DNA from: an uncultured Acidimicrobiales bacterium
GTDB taxonomy: Bacteria > Actinomycetota > Acidimicrobiia > Acidimicrobiales > SZUA-35
Length of the DNA: 35,703 bases
Assembly: GCA_937922045.1 (NCBI GenBank)
Contig: CAKZXA010000016.1
Location: 1-35,703, forward strand
Direction: 5' to 3'
Below, one piece after another: positions 12,798 through 23,083 of the stretch (the first letter of the stretch is position 1; each line of letters begins with the position of its first letter). The position numbers and the translations under genes are program-made. Below the pieces are notes generated by a model. The model did no database searches, was not told where the DNA came from, and worked only from the letters and a program-made list of their open reading frames with translations.

Positions 12798-15347
12798 TTA
12801 CTCGCCCGAACCTTCGGGTGACTCAGCCGTCTCGGCCAACTCTGGGGTTGGAGGCGGTTGAAAGCCATCGTGGGCGTTGAAGCTGAGCTGTCGCTCACCG
12901 TTTTCGTCGTTCTCGACATCGACCACGATGATCTGACCAGCGCGATACTCCTTGTACAGAAGCTTCTCCGACAGCACATCTTCGATCTGCCGCTGAATAG
13001 CACGCCGCAACGGACGTGCACCCATGGAGGGGTCGTAGCCGACCTCGCCCAGGAACTCCTTGGCGTCGACCGTGAGTTCCAGACCGATGCCTTGCCCTTC
13101 GAGCTGTTCGACGGTGCGGGCGATCATCAGATCGACGATTTGTACGACCTCGCTCTGCGAAAGCTCGTGGAACACGATCGTCTCGTCGATGCGGTTCAAG
13201 AACTCGGGGCGGAAATGCACCTTGAGAGCGTCGTTGACCTTGTCCTTCATCCGCTCGTAGGACACAGCCTCATCGTTCTTAGAGAAACCGAGGTTTGCCT
13301 TGCGCAGATCCTGGGTACCCAGGTTCGACGTCATGATCAGCACCGTGTTCCGGAAGTCGACGCTGCGGCCCTGTGCATCGGTGAGGCGACCTTCCTCCAG
13401 GATCTGGAGCAGGGTGTTGAACACATCGGGGTGAGCCTTCTCGATCTCATCAAACAACACGACGGAGAACGGCTTGCGACGCACCGCTTCGGTGAGCTGT
13501 CCGCCCTCCTCGTAACCGACGTAGCCGGGGGGCGAACCCACGAGGCGACTCACGGTGTGCTTCTCCATGTACTCGGACATGTCGAGGGTGATGAGAGCCT
13601 TGTCGTCGCCAAACAAGAACTCTGAGAGTGTCTTGGCCAGCTCGGTCTTGCCCACGCCGGTTGGGCCGAGGAAGATGAACGAACCCGAGGGTCGGTTCGG
13701 ATCTTTCAGGCCGGCCCGGGTGCGGCGGATCGATTGGGAGACAGCGTGGATGGCGTCTTCCTGGCCGATCACTCGCTTGTGGAGCTCGTCCTCCATGCGG
13801 AGGAGCTTGGCCGTCTCCTCTTCGGTAAGCTTGTAGACCGGGATTCCGGTCCAGATCGAGAGCACTTCGGCGATCGATTCCTCGTTGACTTCGTCGAACA
13901 GGTCGACACCGGAGGCCTTGATTTCGGCCTCCATCGTCTCCTTCTTGCCCAGGAGCTCTTTCTCCTGGTCACGAAGCCGACCGGCGGCCTCGAAGTCTTG
14001 CTGCTCAACCGCTTCCTTCTTCTGCGTTACCACATCGGACAGCTCGTTCTCGAGCTCCTTGAACGCTGGCGGTGTGCTCATGCGCTTGATGCGCAGGCGA
14101 GAACCGGCCTCATCGATGAGGTCGATGGCCTTGTCGGGAAGTTGACGATCGGAAATGTACCGGTCGGCCAGATTGGCTGAAGCCACGAGGGCTTGATCGG
14201 TGATCGTGACCCGGTGATGGCTCTCGTAGCGATCGCGTAGACCCTTGAGAATCTCGATGGTGTGCTCAACCGTCGGCTCTTCAACCTTGATCGGCTGGAA
14301 GCGTCGTTCGAGCGCTGCGTCCTTTTCCAGATGCTTGCGGTACTCCTCAAGCGTGGTGGCGCCGATGGTCTGCAGTTCACCACGAGCCAGCATCGGCTTG
14401 AGGATGCTGGCGGCGTCAATGGCACCTTCGGCTGCACCGGCGCCGACGAGGGTGTGTAGCTCGTCGATGAACAGGATGATGTCGCCTCGGGTCTTGATCT
14501 CCTTGAGCACCTTCTTGAGGCGCTCCTCGAAGTCACCGCGGTAGCGAGAGCCGGCGACGAGAGCGCCGAGATCAAGGGTGTAGAGCTGCTTGCCTCGAAG
14601 GGTGTCGGGCACCTCATCGTTGGCGATCTGTTGGGCTAGGCCTTCGACGATGGCGGTCTTACCGACACCGGGCTCACCGATGAGGACCGGGTTGTTCTTG
14701 GTACGACGACTCAGCACCTGCATGACGCGCTCGGCCTCACGGGTCCGGCCGATCACCGGGTCGAGCTTTTTCTCTCGAGCTAGCTGGGTGAGGTTGCGAC
14801 CGAATTGATCGAGGATCAGCGAACCGGAACCGGCTTCCTGACCACTGCCACCGCTGGTCGTCGACGACTTGCCGCCCTCCGGGGCCCCACCGGTCTGACC
14901 GGATGGACCCGAATAGCCGGACAGCAGTTGGATGACCTGCTGGCGCACTCGCGAGAGGTCGGCGCCAAGCTTGACCAGCACCTGAGCGGCAACGCCCTCG
15001 CCTTCGCGGATGAGACCGAGCAGGATGTGCTCGGTGCCGATGTAGTTGTGGCCGAGCTGCAGTGCTTCGCGCAGCGACAGCTCAAGGACCTTCTTAGCCC
15101 TCGGTGTGAACGGAATATGACCGCTCGGCGACGAACCGCCCTGACCGATGATGTCCTCGACCTGGCTTCGCACCGCCTCGAGCGAGATCGAGAGCGATTC
15201 GAGGGCCTTGGCGGCCACTCCTTCGCCCTCATGAATCAGACCGAGCAGGATGTGCTCGGTCCCGATGTAGTTGTGGTTGAGCAGACGAGCTTCCTCTTGG
15301 GCGAGGACCACAACTCGGCGGGCTCGGTCGGTAAAGCGTTCAAACAT
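12798..15347 (-). CDS. clpC: ATP-dependent Clp protease ATPase subunit ClpC
   Basis: Unfolds proteins and feeds them to ClpP. The 849-residue protein begins with the canonical [11 protein letters not shown], followed by two Clp-N repeats (about 2-145, each with [13 protein letters not shown]), the first AAA+ domain (P-loop GEPGVGKT at 224-231, Walker B ILFIDE near 291), a UVR-containing middle domain (about 430-475) and the second AAA+ domain (P-loop GPTGVGKT at 561-568). An LGF motif near residue 690 is the usual ClpP-docking loop. The ATG at 15347 has GGGAG about 6 nt upstream; a TTG directly before it is not needed. In mycobacteria lsr2 lies between clpC and lysS; there is no lsr2 here. 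Confidence 0.97.
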
Positions 15348-15828
15348 CAAGTACTCCCAGGATGCGGGTGTTAGACAAGCTTGTGGCGTCGGGTGGATCG
15401 GTTTGGTGTTGGCGGCTTAGCAGCAGTTCAGGTGAAACAGCTACGAAAAGCGAATTCAAAGAAAACGTAACATTTGAGTTTAGCGCTTGCGAAGTTGGAG
15501 AGCGTCGGATTTGGGGTTGGTTTCCTCAGCTGGGGGGTTTCACCTGGTTTCATCTGGGCGAAACAGACTCGTTGATTCGGTTGGGCCCGGTCAAATGGCC
15601 CTTCCAGGATACTGAGCCATCGGTTCGGTCCGGAACTTGGATCGGCATGAAGGCCGCAAATCGTGAGCGGTCGGCCGGAGCTATCTACCCTCGATCGCTG
15701 TGGAAGGTAATCGCGGGCTCTGAACTCTACGGCCGAAGGCCGAAACGGCGCCTAAAGCCAATCTCGGGAGATGCAGGGGGCATGACGGCCGCGGGCACGC
15801 CTGCCAATTCGGCCTCATTTCGCCTACC
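15348..15828. promoter_or_regulatory. Non-coding divergent region between clpC and polyprenyl synthase
   Basis: About 480 nt with no convincing gene. The section 15430-15490 is clearly AT-richer than its surroundings and probably holds the clpC promoter on the minus strand. I looked for known clpC controls. A ClgR operator (CGC-N5-GCG) is not present; the nearest candidate near 15483-15490 has only two bases between CGC and GCG. No good GGAA-N18-GTT SigH/SigR promoter is visible. A small GGCCG inverted repeat near 15731 lacks a T-run. One long plus-strand open frame crosses the region but has no family features. Confidence 0.45.
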
Positions 15829-16892: not shown

Positions 16893-19800
16893 CTACGACG
16901 TCAGTGCAAACTGCACCAGCGTGATACGGCGATCGGCGAGCATCAGACCGCGACCGGGCACCATCGCTAGACCGGGGTGCCATGGCGGTGCCGCGTCGAA
17001 GACATCGTGGGCGTCGCGAGCGGCGGTCGGGGCGAGGAGCACCTGCGTCCGGGCCTTCTTGGCCTGCTGAAGGCTTTGATCAGCGATGTAGGCGTTGGCA
17101 GCCAGCGTAGGCCCGGCGACCGCCCAGCGGACCACTCGCAGGGCCTGAGCCAGAGCTTGCTCGACCTCGATCCGTCCGTCGATCAACCGATCGATGTCGT
17201 CCACGAGGAGAAGCCGCACCATGTCAGCCGCGCCTGGCCCCGACGCTGCCTCGCCAACAGCCACCAACTCGTTGAGCATCGTGACCATCTGACCACCGTC
17301 GCCCACCACTTTGCGGTGGGCGCCGTCGAAGGTGTTCAGCGGCGACGAAAGCGAAGCGGCCAGCCATACCTCGCCGCCAGCGTCGGCCACCCGCCGCCCG
17401 ATGGCGGCAAGCAGCGTGGATCGACCGGTCCGAGGATCACCCTGGACATAGACATCGTCGAAGGTCAGATCGAGGGTCACAGGGGCCAAGGTCAGATCGG
17501 CGAGCGCCAGTACCGGCGCCCACGGCTGGCCTTCGTCCTGGATCATGCCTAACTCGATGGTCGCCGGGAGCGGCGAGGTGCGCAGGCCCTCGCTGATCTC
17601 ACCCAAGAGGCTCGGCGCCAGTTTGGCCACCAGCTCGCGCTCAGCCTGCTCTCCTCCGTCGGTGAGCCGCGCCACCTGGATGGTGGCATTGGTGACGTCA
17701 GCCCCCGACCACAACCCTTGACCGGGAGCAAGATCCAAATCGGCTGCCAGCTGTGAGCCGACGCCCGCGTCCAGATAGTCGCTGCTGTCGGATTGCCGCA
17801 GCAAGATCCGTTCGGTGAAGGCCGCCGACAAGGCCATGCGTAAGCCAGCTCGCCGGTAGGCGGTAGCGACGGTAAGGATGCCGCTGTGGCGGCCGTTGGC
17901 CACGATTTCGACCAGCCGGTCGTAGTAGGGCAGGAGGCCGGATGCGTGAGAACTTTGTTCGAGGGCCTGGATCAGGTTGTCGAGCCCGTCGATGATCAGG
18001 AGGATCGTCGAGTCTCCTGCAGCGGTCGCCTCTTCCGAGCGCGAACGTCGCCGATCGAATTCGTTCCCGAGGACCGAGATCACCCGGGTAACCGCCTCGA
18101 TCTCATCCCCTGCCGCTACGGCCGCGCACTGGGGAAGGTCGGCCAGGATCGACATCTGCCGAGAACCGAAGTCCAGTCCGACGATGTCGAGGCCGCCACC
18201 GCCGGCGACCGAGTCGTCGAGAGCGGCTGCGACAGCCAAGGTTCGCAAGGTTGAGGATTTGCCCGAGCCGGGTGCTCCGAGCACCAGCAAGCCACCAGCC
18301 CGGCCTAGATTCACCACCGCCGGGTATTGATCTTGCGCTTCGGGTTCATCCACAAAGCCGATCACGAACTCCGAGCCGACTCGCCGGCCGGTGGTTGAGC
18401 GCTCATCGGCCTGGGCTAGAGCGTCACCCAGCAAGACCACATCGGGAAGCGCCTCAACCCAGGGGGCAGGGCCTTGAGAGAAACCGCCGACATCGGCCGC
18501 GTGAGCGATTGCGGCGAGCAGCGTTTCGAGCTGGGTCGAAGTGTCTTCAGACCCAAGGGCCGCATGAAGCTGAGCCGCCTCATCATGCTGGGATACCTCG
18601 CCCTTGAGGCGCCTCTCGGCGTGTTCGTCGGCGCTGGTTGCTGGCCGGTGGCCAAAGGGTTCGACGATGACTGGATGAGTTCCGGAACCGACAAGAAGAG
18701 GGGCTCCCGACCAGGCTGCCTGGAACGCTGAGAGACGCCCATCACCGCGAGCGATATAGCCCCGCCCCTTCAACGGGCCGGGGATGGTGGCTGCGTCGCC
18801 CGAGCCGATGATGGCCCGCGATTCACCATCATCCAGCATTCGTAGAGCGACCCTCAGGTTCGTGTTGGCCTTGATGTTGTCGTTCACCACACCCGAGGGG
18901 CGTTGGGTGGCCAACAGGAGATGAATGCCGAGGCTGCGGCCGCGTTGGGCAACATCGACAACTCCGTCGACAAAGCCGGGTACCTCGTTGACGAGCGTGG
19001 CGAACTCATCGATGACGATCACCAAGGATGGAGCGACATCGGCCGCGCCAGAGGCCCGCAGTTCTGCCATGTCCTTGGCCCGCCCCGACAACAACGTCAT
19101 ACGACGGTTCAGCTCAGCCCTTAGCGAGGTGAGCGCTCGATTGGCCAGCGCAGCATCGAGGTTGGTGACACAGCCAGCGGTGTGCGGGCATGCGGCAAAG
19201 ACCTCGCTGGAGGCGCCTCCCTTGTAGTCGATAAACAGGAAGTTCAGTTTGTCGGGCGGATGCAGGGCCATCATCGAAGCCACCATCGACATCAACAGCT
19301 CGCTCTTGCCCGCACCGCTCGTGCCACCGATGAGGCCATGGGGGCCATGCTCGACCAGGTCAACGATCAGAGCTCCGTGTTCGGTCACGCCAACGGGAGC
19401 GGCCAGGCTGGAGCCCGCCCCCTTGCTCTGCTGCCACTGTTGCGCCACCCATGCGGCGTCGACCCCAGCAATGCCTAGCGATCCGAACAAAGGAACAGAG
19501 GTGGGAATGGCGGTGGCAGCGTCGGCGGAGGAGGCATCGCGCAAAGGAGCGAGAGCCCGGGCTGTGAGCGCAGCCCGCTCGGCTGGAAGGTGTTCGACGA
19601 CGAAGGTCGCGTCGGGGCGCTCGGGGTCGGTGTAAACAATTGATGAGGCGGAGGATTCGACCGGTGACCGAGCATCGACCACCGCTCCGGCCTGGCGAGG
19701 CACCCGGGGCAATTCCTCAGACACCCACACCACCGAGATGCCAGCCGCTGGCGCCATATCGAGAAGCCGAGAGACGGCGGGAGCATCGAGGCCAAGAGCA

Positions 19801-21335
19801 TTGTCCAAGATGAGCAGAAGCCAGGGGAACTGGATCGGCGATGGCTGGATCTGAAGGCGACGTTCAGCTTCCAACAGGGCTGCCCCGATGAGGGCGTCGC
19901 CTTCTGCGCCATTCTCGACCAGATGCTGGCCCTCAAGGGGTGAGGCTCCCGATCGGGTGTGGGGTAACCATTTCATCCAACCGGTCAAACCGCGCCCTGG
20001 CCCCACCCCCGCCGCCACGATCAGATCCTCCGGGCTATGCCAGCAGCATGCCTGCACCACCAGCGAGGCGACGAGGGGCGTCGTGTTGGTTTCGCGACCG
20101 ACGACCCCCAGGGTGCCAAGGTCAGCGAGATCGGCGGTGACCGGCACATCGATGAGCTCATCGACCGACGGCAGCTGGCGCTCCATCTGATACCGGTACT
20201 CGTCGTCGCCGCCGGCTGGCACATGAAGCTGGGTCGTTGGCAGGATCGTTCCCAAACCGAGCCGAAGTTGGAGAAAATCCTGGGCGCTACGAGGCCGCAC
20301 CCAGAGCTCAGGCGATCCCGATGCAGCTCGACGATGAAGCTCCACCAGATCCGGGGCTGCTTCAAAGCGGCGTCGACGCTCCTCGACCAAGGCTGCGGTG
20401 AGAGCGGCGCTAGCCTCCACTAGTTCACGGTTGAAACGATCGACGGTGGCCGAGAACGCATCCCCGAAGCGGCGCTTGTTTTCGAGGAACGAAGCAATGG
20501 CCATGATCGGCGAGAACAAGCCGAACAGCAGATACTGGGGCGAGTCGAGCACAACGGCGAGGCCAACCGCTACGACCAAGGGGGCAAGTGCCGCCAGATA
20601 CGTAAAGCGGGGCCGTTCGGGGTTGGTGGGAACGGCGCTGAAGGGCCGTACGTTCACCTCCTCGACCGGTTTCGGGAAGTAGGGGGCACGGTGGAAGGGC
20701 AACCAGCCATGAACGTCGGGGATGGTGGCCCTCGCCGCGGGGCTAGCCCTCAGGCCAAAGGCAGTGGAACCGGTGGTGAGGCTGGTTCCAACCGCCATCC
20801 GCTCCCTGCCGAGAAGGGTTCGCCCATCGAGCCGCACCTGCCCGATAGCTTCGGTGGCCGGTTCAACCCACACGTCGCCCGCTTCATCTCGCCAGACCAT
20901 CAGCTGCTGGCGACCCATCTTTGGATCGACCAGGTCGAGGTCGCAGGTGGCGTCTCGCCCCGCGACGATGCTCGACGTTCCGAGCAAAGCGCTACGGCCG
21001 ATGTCGGGGCCAGCCACCACCGTGAGCAGCATCGAAGAAGGGGTCGTCACCACCATGGCGCTTGGTTCCTTTTGGAGGCCGTCACCGTTGGCTACGGCGA
21101 GGCTCTCCCCCGATACCAGGCCAGCCGCCGCTGGGCTCGACGCGGCATCGAGCAACCCGTCGGCCCGGGCCAGCGTGAGATTCGACCCCGGGTCGAGGCC
21201 AAGATGCGCGGCTACTGCCTCGGCCATCTCCCCAACGGTGTGGTCAGGTTCGACCGTGACCACAAGATCATCGGCGAGCGAACCGGCGTGACCGTCCACT
21301 CGTTTCTCGAAATGTAAGAGATACTCCACCGCCAC
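16893..21335 (-). CDS. FHA-domain FtsK/SpoIIIE ATPase, type VII secretion EccC/EssC-like
   Basis: At 1480 residues, this matches the motor ATPase of type VII (ESX/WXG100) secretion. In order: an N-terminal ubiquitin-like region (about 1-85), an FHA-like domain (about 103-195, with SIVAGRDATCDLDL), two adjacent membrane helices (about 244-286), then three ATPase domains. D1 has a full P-loop GGTSGAGKS (about 670) and Walker B LVIVIDE (about 772); D2 has GAPGSGKS (about 1020) and LLIIDG (about 1112); D3 has a degenerate GDPRTGRS (Lys to Arg, about 1299). Fused FHA and three ATPases resemble EssC of Bacillota more than the split EccCa/EccCb. No WXG100, EccB, EccD or YukD gene is in the window, so partners must lie elsewhere. 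GTG start; an in-frame GTG 6 nt later is possible. Confidence 0.85.
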   Translation of the reverse strand: MAVEYLLHFEKRVDGHAGSLADDLVVTVEPDHTVGEMAEAVAAHLGLDPGSNLTLARADGLLDAASSPAAAGLVSGESLAVANGDGLQKEPSAMVVTTPSSMLLTVVAGPDIGRSALLGTSSIVAGRDATCDLDLVDPKMGRQQLMVWRDEAGDVWVEPATEAIGQVRLDGRTLLGRERMAVGTSLTTGSTAFGLRASPAARATIPDVHGWLPFHRAPYFPKPVEEVNVRPFSAVPTNPERPRFTYLAALAPLVVAVGLAVVLDSPQYLLFGLFSPIMAIASFLENKRRFGDAFSATVDRFNRELVEASAALTAALVEERRRRFEAAPDLVELHRRAASGSPELWVRPRSAQDFLQLRLGLGTILPTTQLHVPAGGDDEYRYQMERQLPSVDELIDVPVTADLADLGTLGVVGRETNTTPLVASLVVQACCWHSPEDLIVAAGVGPGRGLTGWMKWLPHTRSGASPLEGQHLVENGAEGDALIGAALLEAERRLQIQPSPIQFPWLLLILDNALGLDAPAVSRLLDMAPAAGISVVWVSEELPRVPRQAGAVVDARSPVESSASSIVYTDPERPDATFVVEHLPAERAALTARALAPLRDASSADAATAIPTSVPLFGSLGIAGVDAAWVAQQWQQSKGAGSSLAAPVGVTEHGALIVDLVEHGPHGLIGGTSGAGKSELLMSMVASMMALHPPDKLNFLFIDYKGGASSEVFAACPHTAGCVTNLDAALANRALTSLRAELNRRMTLLSGRAKDMAELRASGAADVAPSLVIVIDEFATLVNEVPGFVDGVVDVAQRGRSLGIHLLLATQRPSGVVNDNIKANTNLRVALRMLDDGESRAIIGSGDAATIPGPLKGRGYIARGDGRLSAFQAAWSGAPLLVGSGTHPVIVEPFGHRPATSADEHAERRLKGEVSQHDEAAQLHAALGSEDTSTQLETLLAAIAHAADVGGFSQGPAPWVEALPDVVLLGDALAQADERSTTGRRVGSEFVIGFVDEPEAQDQYPAVVNLGRAGGLLVLGAPGSGKSSTLRTLAVAAALDDSVAGGGGLDIVGLDFGSRQMSILADLPQCAAVAAGDEIEAVTRVISVLGNEFDRRRSRSEEATAAGDSTILLIIDGLDNLIQALEQSSHASGLLPYYDRLVEIVANGRHSGILTVATAYRRAGLRMALSAAFTERILLRQSDSSDYLDAGVGSQLAADLDLAPGQGLWSGADVTNATIQVARLTDGGEQAERELVAKLAPSLLGEISEGLRTSPLPATIELGMIQDEGQPWAPVLALADLTLAPVTLDLTFDDVYVQGDPRTGRSTLLAAIGRRVADAGGEVWLAASLSSPLNTFDGAHRKVVGDGGQMVTMLNELVAVGEAASGPGAADMVRLLLVDDIDRLIDGRIEVEQALAQALRVVRWAVAGPTLAANAYIADQSLQQAKKARTQVLLAPTAARDAHDVFDAAPPWHPGLAMVPGRGLMLADRRITLVQFALTS

Positions 21336-21469: not shown

Positions 21470-21511
21470 GCTCGCAAGAGGCCCGCACATGCCGCAGGAG
21501 CAGGCGCCACC

Positions 21512-22489
21512 ATGACCTCCGCAATCATCCAACCGAGAGCCGACGTTCAAGCCATCGTGGCCCAAACCGTCGCCGGACTCGCCCAGCCTGGTTCGTTCTT
21601 TACCGGTGCTGAACGGGTTGCCCTGGCCGAAACAGCCCGACTGGCCCTTGGACGCGGCCTCCAACTCGATTCGATTCCCGAGCCCTTTGACGAGGCCACC
21701 CGGCTGGTGAGTGCCGACGCCGCGAGCATTCGCCGTGAGCTCGTCGAACACTGGGCGATCGCCGACCTCGACCGGCTTTCCTACGTCGAACTCGTCTCGG
21801 TCGTAGCCCGCCTCAGCGCCGCCGACGCTTACAACTATGGGCTCGGGTTGGCCCTCATCGATCTTCCGGCGAAGGCGTCGTCCCAGCCGAGCTCAGTAGA
21901 TGCGCACCCCGAGGCCGCCATTCACAATTCATGGGTCCCGACGGTTGGTTCTGCCAGTGCGGTAAATGCCCTGTCTGCGGTGCCAGCCGAGGCCTCGGCT
22001 GTGCGAGAAATGCACACCTTCCTGTACTTGCCTTACGAACATGTTGGTGATCTGTCGAAATCGGGTAGTGGGCCTCTTACCCGTCCCCAGATGGAGTTGG
22101 TAGCGGCTCGTACTTCGTACCTCAACGAGTGCTTCTATTGACTGTTCGCCCATGGCTGGATGCTCCGTGCGAGCGCCGAACAACAAGCTCTAACGGTCGA
22201 CCTGTTGGCCGCTCGCGATCCTTTTGTCGCTGCGGGACTCGAACACGACTCGATCATCCTTGCCTTCGTCGACGCCATCGTGCTTCGCGACGACGACGAA
22301 CTGGAGCTCGCCCGTGAGCAGCTGGTAGACACCGCCGGCGCTGAGGTGGTGGAAGCGGTGGCAGCTATCACCGCAAACTTTGAGATGATGAACCGCATTC
22401 TGGACGCCACCGGAGTGCCGGTCGCGGCCCGGTATGCCACGGTTGGCGAAACACTTGGCCTCTCCATACCAGCCCATCTGCGGGCCTGA
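21512..22489 (+). CDS. AhpD-like peroxidase-fold selenoprotein (in-frame TGA read as Sec)
   Basis: Two open frames, 21512-22141 and from 22142 on, are in the same frame and separated only by TGA (22139-22141). Read through, they form one 325-residue protein. The TGA falls in Asn-Glu-Cys207-Phe-Tyr-TGA210-Leu-Phe-Ala-His214, exactly matching the AhpD active-site pattern CxxCxxxH with the second Cys replaced. Both sides look like one alkylhydroperoxidase/carboxymuconolactone-decarboxylase-type protein: RTSYLNEC before, HGWMLRASAEQQ with an Ala-rich helix and an ATVGETLGL C-terminus after. AhpD-like selenoproteins are known. Likely role: selenol-dependent peroxide or disulfide reduction. A GGDEF-like gene follows 60 nt downstream. 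A true stop or a frame-preserving nonsense mutation is the alternative; Sec machinery genes are not in the window. Confidence 0.82.
22143..22182 (+). promoter_or_regulatory. Candidate bacterial SECIS hairpin
   Basis: Immediately after the TGA, TGTTCG (22143-22148) pairs perfectly with CGAACA (22177-22182). Inside, an upper stem forms from GCTGGA (22155-22160) with TCCG and GC (22164-22170, one bulged T at 22168), closing a three-base loop TGC (22161-22163). A G in the first two loop positions and a loop about 19 nt from the TGA fit the published bacterial SECIS pattern. The structure was drawn by hand. Confidence 0.55.
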
Positions 22490-22549: not shown

Positions 22550-23083
22550 ATGACCCTGCCGTCATTGGAGCCTTCACAGTCGTTGCCCGCCGAACGCGAG
22601 GTGATGGCCCAAACAATTCAGCATCTGCTCGATACCACAGCCCCGACGGGCCCAACGGGGCTCCTGATGATCCATCTCGACGCGATCGATGCGGTAACGA
22701 TTCCGGTCGATGATCCCGGCGATCTCGGCGAACGTCTCCTAAAGGCTGCCTACAATCGCGTGACCTCCCTGCTCAAAGGGCCAGACCGCACGTTACGCGT
22801 CGGCCTCGACGAAATCGCCGTCATTCGCGCCGGGATGCAAGCGCCAGCCGAAGCAGAGGGACTTGCCTTGCATCTGAGCGAGGCGTTGAAGAAACCCTTC
22901 GAACTGGATGCGATTTCGGCCACCTGCCCGTTTGCCATCGGTGTGGCTGCCACCTTGCAGGGCGATGATGCTCGCGACCTGATCAGGTTCGCGGAGCACG
23001 CGCTCTCGAACGCCGTCGTACTCGGCCGAAACCAAATGGTGGCCTTCGACGACGCCGACCGCGAACTGCTCGCAGCCGACTGA
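22550..23083 (+). CDS. Degenerate GGDEF-domain protein
   Basis: A 177-residue protein that fits a single GGDEF domain with no sensor or membrane part. The signature loop reads R-V-G85-L-D-E-I89 instead of GGDEF, and the LxxFKxxND metal/substrate motif is replaced by a stretch around HLDAIDAVTIP. The typical ending of a GGDEF domain (ADxALxxAKxxGRNxxxxFD) is visible as AEHALSNAVVLGRNQMVAFDD. Loss of the second Gly and the Phe suggests no diguanylate cyclase activity; it could bind GTP or c-di-GMP, or act by protein contact. It lies 60 nt after the selenoprotein gene in the same direction and ends 9 nt from the convergent lysS. Confidence 0.75.
   Translation: MTLPSLEPSQSLPAEREVMAQTIQHLLDTTAPTGPTGLLMIHLDAIDAVTIPVDDPGDLGERLLKAAYNRVTSLLKGPDRTLRVGLDEIAVIRAGMQAPAEAEGLALHLSEALKKPFELDAISATCPFAIGVAATLQGDDARDLIRFAEHALSNAVVLGRNQMVAFDDADRELLAAD

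What the first reader, a model, noticed from the sequence alone, without database searches (positions are those of the whole stretch)
21512..22489. Selenocysteine AhpD-like protein: TGA at the second Cys of CxxCxxxH
Seen: two frames in the same phase, split by one TGA at 22139-22141, whose codon position corresponds to the resolving Cys of an AhpD-type motif (Cys207-x-x-TGA210-x-x-x-His214). The flanks complete the domain on both sides. Known: AhpD uses a CxxC dithiol backed by a His, and AhpD-like selenoproteins exist. Inference: this is a CxxU enzyme, likely a strong peroxide or disulfide reductase, normally annotated as two truncated proteins.
Basis: partly seen in the sequence, partly recalled or inferred. 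Interest (0 to 1): 0.92.

Follow-up and report, generated by a model that had tools for sequence, protein, structure and literature searches.

The report
Known AhpD-related selenoprotein, new member
The gene that looks cut in two by a stop codon most likely encodes a selenium-containing redox protein whose internal TGA is read as selenocysteine; the evidence here is strong, but the protein family was already known.

Summary
One frame, 21512-22489 (+), has a TGA (22139-22141) at residue 210 of C207-F-Y-U210-x3-H214. Read through, it matches NCBIfam NF041238, 'alkylhydroperoxidase-related (seleno)protein' (221 bits, cut-off 175), listed as a CxxU selenoprotein in a 2026 review. The genome encodes tRNA-Sec, SelA, SelB and SelD. 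Of 51 genes read by codon, 50 have TGA here and one TGC. A SECIS-type hairpin, loop 24 nt after the TGA, fixes codons that vary elsewhere in these genes (CTC in 50 of 50 Leu against 38%; AGY in 49 of 49 Ser against 29%). So it is a new member of a known selenoprotein family, of untested activity. Correction: the second position need not be the resolving one; in M. tuberculosis AhpD it is the second Cys that cross-links to AhpC. Addition: the model looks like a fused pair of AhpD-like domains, the N-terminal one inactive, arranged like human Sestrin2 (Z 16.9), a build already described for bacterial Cys proteins.

The parts
21496..21500 (+). AGGAG, Shine-Dalgarno-like, 11 nt before the ATG
   Evidence: sequence; function inferred
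21512..22489 (+). Whole selenoprotein gene, 325 residues with Sec210, stop TGA 22487-22489
21512..21958 (+). N-terminal half (residues 1-149): probably a degenerate AhpD-like domain, without Cys in the window protein; invariant Glu93, Asp105 where the first Cys would be
   Evidence: folded alone, pLDDT 93.3; the nine best PDB rows are AhpD/CMD proteins, Z 7.9 to 6.4, the next 4.0 and 3.1 (Z under 8 is weak for helical folds by the tool's own note); pseudo-site residues
21959..22486 (+). C-terminal half: AhpD-like domain with Glu195, Cys207, Tyr209, Sec210, His214
22139..22141 (+). TGA read as selenocysteine 210
22158..22177 (+). Putative bacterial SECIS hairpin: core stem GCTC 22162-22165 with GAGC 22171-22174, loop CGTGC 22166-22170; 24 nt lie between the TGA and the loop

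Best explanation
The gene encodes an AhpD-related selenoprotein of family NF041238. SelB with Sec-tRNA(Sec) decodes the internal UGA, helped by a hairpin whose loop starts 24 nt downstream (supported by sequence, not by experiment). The product is modelled as two fused AhpD-like domains, of which only the C-terminal one keeps the proton-relay set Glu195, Cys207, Tyr209, Sec210, His214 (alignment and model). Most likely mechanism, inferred and about 0.6 likely: the selenolate of Sec210, activated by the Glu/His relay, attacks a hydroperoxide or a protein disulfide such as that of a peroxiredoxin; Cys207 then closes a selenenyl-sulfide that a thiol reductant reopens. The confidence given is for the selenoprotein identity and family, not for the mechanism.
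For: NF041238 221.1 bits, cut-off 175, over residues 9-311. tRNA-Sec 67.1 bits, cut-off 47, ARAGORN anticodon tca; selA 400.3 and selB 253.5 bits side by side on contig C103; selD 359.9 bits, itself with an in-frame TGA. Of 395 genomes of the class, 74 have a match over cut-off; in 73 the match holds exactly one TGA. By codon 50 of 51 TGA, 1 TGC. Leu codon U+8 is CTC in 50 of 50 and Ser codon U+11 is AGY in 49 of 49, against 38% and 29% elsewhere in the same frames; with one vote per cluster at 42% identity still 15 of 15 and 15 of 15, and control codons upstream behave otherwise (Leu U-14 is CTC in 9 of 43; Ser U-8 is TCN in 49 of 49). Among genomes of 90% completeness or more, 44 of 46 TGA carriers have a tRNA-Sec hit against 120 of 222 others. 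Glu195, Cys207, Sec/Cys210 and His214 are invariant in 35 of 35 aligned, spaced as Glu36, Cys48, Cys51, His55 of PA0269.
Against: No protein, 75Se or activity data. Folding of the window RNA is not clearly more stable than shuffles (z -0.26, -0.21, -0.89, -1.05); the three innermost stem pairs never vary in the 26 aligned, so covariation says little. 7 of 50 hairpins miss -7.5 kcal/mol in my local fold. 14 of 73 TGA carriers lack a tRNA-Sec hit; 12 of these are under 90% complete, G210 (94) and G245 (92) are not. One Cys homologue (L076, TGC) keeps the hairpin core. Pfam CMD is below its cut-off (17.5 whole protein, 22.0 fragment, cut-off 23). No conserved neighbour points to a partner. On mechanism: in Burkholderia thailandensis AhpD the first Cys mattered more than the second.
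Confidence: 0.95

Rival explanations
1. Two separate genes or a pseudogene: the TGA is a true stop, and a second protein starts at ATG 22160.
For: An ATG-led ORF 22160-22489 exists.
Against: That start lies after His214, so the product would lose the active site, and no Shine-Dalgarno-like stretch precedes it. The same codon is TGA in 50 of 51 genes read, with conservation on both sides, and the one alternative is TGC.
Confidence: 0.02
2. Sequencing error: the true codon is a sense codon.
For: Draft genome in 128 contigs; a relative has TGC here (L076).
Against: One TGA in the match in 73 of the 74 genomes over cut-off, at this very codon in 50 of 51 genes read; synonymous-codon constraint after it.
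Confidence: 0.01
3. TGA is reassigned genome-wide to another residue such as Trp.
For: In-frame TGA.
Against: TGA ends this gene and the GGDEF ORF 22550-23083; the residue at this place in non-TGA relatives is Cys; Sec machinery is present.
Confidence: 0.01
4. The selenoprotein is real but is not a peroxide or peroxiredoxin reductase: the AhpD fold also carries other chemistry, for example the debrominase Bmp8 (6ohi, 6ohj), so the Sec may serve as a dehalogenase or another disulfide reductase. This rivals only the mechanism, not the identity.
For: Bmp8 matches about as well as AhpD-like proteins do (Z 12.9, 2.6 A over 163 residues, against 13.2 for 2prr).
Against: Such ties in Z do not discriminate, and a fold gives no substrate. 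The Glu/Cys/Tyr/Cys/His set is that of AhpD-like peroxidases.
Confidence: 0.25

Closest known systems
NF041238 AhpD_rel_CFYUT, alkylhydroperoxidase-related (seleno)protein; 'hypothetical protein 1' of the Sargasso Sea selenoproteome (PMC1088965, PMC13188914; passages)
   Same: Match over the curated cut-off across both halves, CxxU motif, SECIS-type hairpin
   Different: Motif CFYUL instead of CFYUT. In the genes read, U is followed by Leu, Thr, Val or Ala; the four genes from the three same-family genomes G223, G273 and G314 all have Leu
AhpD-like selenoproteins 1 and 2 of the GOS study (COG2128, pfam02627; CxxU) (PMC2398784, passages)
   Same: CxxU in an AhpD/CMD-type protein
   Different: Listed there under other domain families; not compared by sequence here
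Peroxidase-related AhpD-like proteins 2prr, 2pfx, 6k40
   Same: C-terminal half: 23-25% identity, Z 12.2 to 13.2
   Different: Chains of 185-197 residues, one domain, Cys in place of Sec
Human Sestrin2 (5dj4, 5t0n)
   Same: Two AhpD-like domains in one chain in the same order: Z 16.9, 3.2-3.3 A over 232 residues
   Different: 9-10% identity; Sestrin2 has its active Cys in the N-terminal domain and lacks the second one, here the active site is in the C-terminal domain
Bacterial fused AhpD proteins of Corynebacterium ureicelerivorans and Comamonas aquatica (PMC11429811, passages)
   Same: N-terminal AhpD-like domain without Cys, C-terminal domain with two redox Cys
   Different: Described with Cys; 'seleno' occurs once in that paper's main text, for selenomethionine

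Membership tests
NF041238 AhpD-related selenoprotein | Score over the curated cut-off of 175 bits | tested here: met
   221.1 bits, residues 9-311 on model 2-342 of 357
NF041238 AhpD-related selenoprotein | CFYU motif with in-frame TGA | tested here: met
   the next residue is Leu, not the Thr of the family name
Bacterial selenoprotein | tRNA-Sec, SelA, SelB, SelD in the genome | tested here: met
Bacterial selenoprotein | bSECIS: loop of 3-9 nt with G in its first two places, upper stem of at least 4 bp, 16-37 nt from UGA to loop, energy -7.5 or lower (rules read in PMC13188914) | tested here: met
   loop CGTGC, 24 nt after UGA, 5-pair upper stem, -10.1 kcal/mol with three core pairs enforced; not clearly more stable than shuffles
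Bacterial selenoprotein | Selenium in the product | not testable with these tools
   needs mass spectrometry or 75Se
AhpD-like peroxidase family | Proton relay Glu, Cys, Tyr/His, Cys, His (PMC3141380) | tested here: met
   Glu195, Cys207, Tyr209, Sec210, His214, same spacing as Glu36, Cys48, Tyr50, Cys51, His55; the last Cys is Sec
AhpD-like peroxidase family | Pfam CMD (PF02627) gathering score 23 | tested here: not met
   17.5 whole protein, 22.0 C-terminal fragment; so filed under NF041238, not under CMD proper
AhpD-like peroxidase family | Peroxidase activity or reduction of AhpC | not testable with these tools
   no assay
Sestrin | Two fused AhpD-like domains | tested here: met
   Z 16.9 over 232 residues; the N-terminal half alone finds AhpD/CMD folds first but with Z under 8
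Sestrin | Redox Cys in the N-terminal domain | tested here: not met
   at the place of the first Cys: Asp in 31 of 35, Cys in 0 of 35; at the place of the second: Asn in the window, Cys in 4 of 35
Sestrin | Sequence match to a sestrin family model | tested here: inconclusive
   only PF02627 was listed in Pfam at E up to 10, but HMMER's filters drop most weak matches

The most novel reading that the evidence does not exclude
NF041238 proteins are selenium-containing bacterial counterparts of the sestrin architecture: a fused AhpD pair whose N-terminal half has lost the first active-site Cys but kept the Glu, and whose C-terminal half carries CxxU. Sestrins have the mirror-image division of labour. 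That would be a second, independent route by which a fused AhpD pair freed one half for regulation or partner binding, here with Sec in the working half. A search for sestrin, selenocysteine and AhpD together gave one paper, on p53 (listing only).
Probability: 0.35. Interest if true: 0.4.

Novelty: new member of a known kind. Interest (0 to 1): 0.22.

Why it matters
It supports, with codon-level evidence, that a widespread selenoprotein family is translated through its TGA in this lineage, so its genes should not be annotated as broken. I saw no experiment on the family in the passages read. The fused-domain reading gives a testable hint about what the extra half is for. It does not change what is known about selenocysteine.

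Tried and rejected
Pseudogene, sequencing error and code reassignment were considered and rejected (see rivals). A hunt for further SECIS elements in the genome with an exact pattern found 5 places (the same pattern read backwards: 0); one is the window gene, the other 4 showed no frame that looked to me like a selenoprotein, judged by eye and not by homology. Viral contigs gave no relative (12 stretches matched a pattern, none confirmed) and plasmids none. Neighbourhood: none of 8 window neighbours was found by tblastn (E 1e-6) in 50 relative loci (flanks up to about 1.5 kb in 30 loci and up to about 4.5 kb in 20, less at contig ends), so no partner is implied within that reach. Rfam had no hit in the window. 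Covariation of the hairpin was sought and is nearly absent. A literature search on Acidimicrobiia with selenoproteins was swamped by unrelated papers. Foldseek gave no PDB match at E 0.001 or lower; its best was 2prr, E 0.0042, probability 1.00. The Sestrin2 match at Z 16.9 stands on VIA-align, which only re-ranks Foldseek's list, where Sestrin2 had E 0.24 and probability 0.18.

Selection and dropped rows: the 51 genes read by codon are the window, the 30 best loci, and 20 that I picked (closest relatives, a spread of others, and on purpose the only stop-free match over cut-off, L062); one of the 20, L051 from G223, scores below the cut-off (158.4). My first motif expression missed 2 of them (L060, L070), added. 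Alignment A1 used 35 of the 51, A2 26. The codon background runs from stop to stop, so it includes some codons before the true start. The genome-contig scan used a pattern written with Cys, so it finds Cys forms only; 80 of 165 relatives were kept. In one search the expression gave 82 matches over those 80 loci, at least one spurious (second row of L086), mostly in distant shorter proteins; 1 of 82 has the hairpin core (L076). Of the four long Cys homologues, L062, L077 and L078 lack the core and L076 has it; L078 counts as long by its frame of 331 codons, its tblastn match covers residues 92-303 only. The handle lists and completeness classes for the co-occurrence count were copied by hand, with completeness as rounded there.

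Full report
What is there. Reading 21512-22489 (+) with TGA as Sec gives 325 residues with C207-F-Y-U210-L-F-A-H214 and a second TGA as the stop. An AGGAG stands 11 nt before the ATG.

Which family. NCBIfam NF041238, 'alkylhydroperoxidase-related (seleno)protein', matches at 221.1 bits (cut-off 175) over residues 9-311; TIGR01926, TIGR00778 and TIGR04030 match below their cut-offs. Pfam CMD is below its cut-off (17.5 and 22.0 against 23). In passages of a 2026 review (PMC13188914) NF041238 is listed with motif CxxU as 'AhpD-related protein (hypothetical protein 1, Sargasso Sea metagenome)'; passages of the 2005 paper (PMC1088965) name hypothetical protein 1 with CXXU and a predicted SECIS. The accession occurs in one paper of the library, that review. 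So the kind of protein was known before.

Machinery. The window's genome (G000, 4.88 Mb, 128 contigs, 96.87% complete) has one tRNA-Sec over the Rfam cut-off, 67.1 bits, at the edge of contig C89, among 10 matches at E 0.001, confirmed by ARAGORN with anticodon tca; selB (253.5 bits) and selA (400.3 bits) side by side on C103; and selD (359.9 bits), which has its own in-frame TGA in HGAGU.

Relatives. Of 395 genomes drawn from the class, 74 have an NF041238 match over cut-off, and in 73 the match holds exactly one TGA; the exception is G247. By codon I read 51 genes: 50 have TGA and one (L062, from G247) TGC at the same codon. G247 has no tRNA-Sec hit but another, weaker match with a TGA, so I draw no conclusion from it. 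Four long Cys homologues were seen (L062, L076, L077, L078); the nearest found in the named genomes, L076, is 43% identical and comes from an 'Acidimicrobiia bacterium' MAG. That the window's host is one of the Acidimicrobiia is my inference from this. Co-occurrence: 59 of 73 TGA carriers have a tRNA-Sec at E 1e-10 or lower, against 186 of 322 others; at 90% completeness or more, 44 of 46 against 120 of 222 (Fisher p 9.5e-9, not corrected for relatedness). Two carriers of at least 90% completeness, G210 and G245, lack the hit.

The hairpin. GCTC-CGTGC-GAGC lies at 22162-22174, with 24 nt between the TGA and the loop. Published bSECIS rules (read in PMC13188914) ask for a small loop with G in its first two places, a spacing of 16-37 nt and -7.5 kcal/mol or lower; the window meets them, at -10.1 kcal/mol with three core pairs enforced. 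Of the 50 TGA genes, 43 (window included) meet the loop-G and energy limits in that forced fold; 7 miss the energy limit (-4.9 to -7.4). Taken alone the window's folding is unremarkable (z -0.26, -0.21, -0.89, -1.05 for four pieces), and the innermost pairs are invariant, so covariation says little. What does speak is codon choice: the Leu codon at U+8 is CTC in 50 of 50 and the Ser codon at U+11 is AGY in 49 of 49 (the 50th gene has Asn), while elsewhere in the same frames CTC is 38% of Leu and AGY 29% of Ser. With one vote per cluster at 42% identity it is still 15 of 15 and 15 of 15; conserved control codons upstream do not show it (Leu U-14: CTC in 9 of 43; Ser U-8: TCN in 49 of 49). Of the four long Cys homologues three lack the core; L076 keeps it, and its genome has tRNA-Sec, as a recent Sec-to-Cys change would leave it (inference). 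The genome of L078 (Cys, no core) has tRNA-Sec too, that of L077 has none.

How it works. Glu195, Cys207, Sec/Cys210 and His214 are invariant in 35 of 35 aligned proteins; position 209 is Tyr in 29 and Phe in 6. The spacing equals Glu36, Cys48, Tyr50, Cys51, His55, the proton relay of PA0269 (passages of PMC3141380). In M. tuberculosis AhpD the second Cys (133), not the first, forms the cross-link with AhpC, while in Burkholderia thailandensis the first mattered more (a passage of PMC6626918). The substrate is unknown: peroxide, peroxiredoxin disulfide or something else, since the debrominase Bmp8 matches the fold about as well as AhpD-like proteins do.

Architecture. The model is confident (pLDDT 95.8, pTM 0.94). 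VIA-align puts human Sestrin2 first (Z 16.9, 3.2 A over 232 residues, model 7-303) and single-domain AhpD relatives next, mainly on the C-terminal half (2prr Z 13.2). Foldseek itself gave no match at E 0.001 or lower: 2prr E 0.0042, Sestrin2 E 0.24 with probability 0.18. The N-terminal half folded alone (pLDDT 93.3) finds nine AhpD/CMD entries first (Z 7.9 to 6.4), then 3bey, an archaeal protein, at 4.0 and others at 3.1 or less; by the tool's note a Z under 8 is weak for helical folds, so this half's kinship rests also on the sequence pattern. It keeps an invariant Glu93, has Asp at the place of the first Cys in 31 of 35, and Gly at the His place in 32 of 35. The window protein has no Cys in its first 180 residues; 12 of 35 relatives have one to three, 4 of them at the place of the second Cys. 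A 2024 review (PMC11429811, passages) already describes bacterial fused AhpD proteins with a Cys-free N-terminal half; in Sestrin2 the active Cys is in the N-terminal half (PMC4674687, passages). The new detail is that a selenoprotein family seems to have this build. Kinship with sestrins is not tested.

Verdict. A well-supported selenoprotein gene, correctly spotted; a new member of a known family whose function I saw tested nowhere in what I read. Interest is modest, because the family and the motif type were known.

Noticed in passing
window 16893-21335 (-): 1480-aa FtsK/SpoIIIE-type ATPase, divergent from the selenoprotein gene, resembling type VII secretion EssC/EccC (TIGR03928 482.8 bits against a cut-off of 778.4), with a second AAA/STAND-like ATPase region; below the family cut-offs.
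   Followed up: partly
G000:C14:85125-86042 (L049): The genome's SelD is itself apparently a selenoprotein (in-frame TGA, motif HGAGU).
   Followed up: partly
L076, TGC codon at 1016: A long Cys homologue from an Acidimicrobiia MAG keeps the SECIS hairpin core after a TGC codon, and its genome has tRNA-Sec: possibly a recent Sec-to-Cys change with a leftover SECIS.
   Followed up: partly
G314, G043, G094, G074 (two each) and G392 (three): Some genomes carry two or three TGA-containing NF041238 genes over cut-off, so the family has paralogues.
   Followed up: no
class scan, family f34 genus g89 (about 1 Mb genomes): At least 18 small genomes of one genus (rows shown of a capped list) carry a shorter AhpD-like gene with one in-frame TGA that scores below the NF041238 cut-off, and all 18 have a tRNA-Sec hit: perhaps a different AhpD-type selenoprotein in reduced genomes.
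   Followed up: no
window 12798-15350 (-): ClpB-like disaggregase (1008.4 bits, below the cut-off of 1232.1).
   Followed up: no
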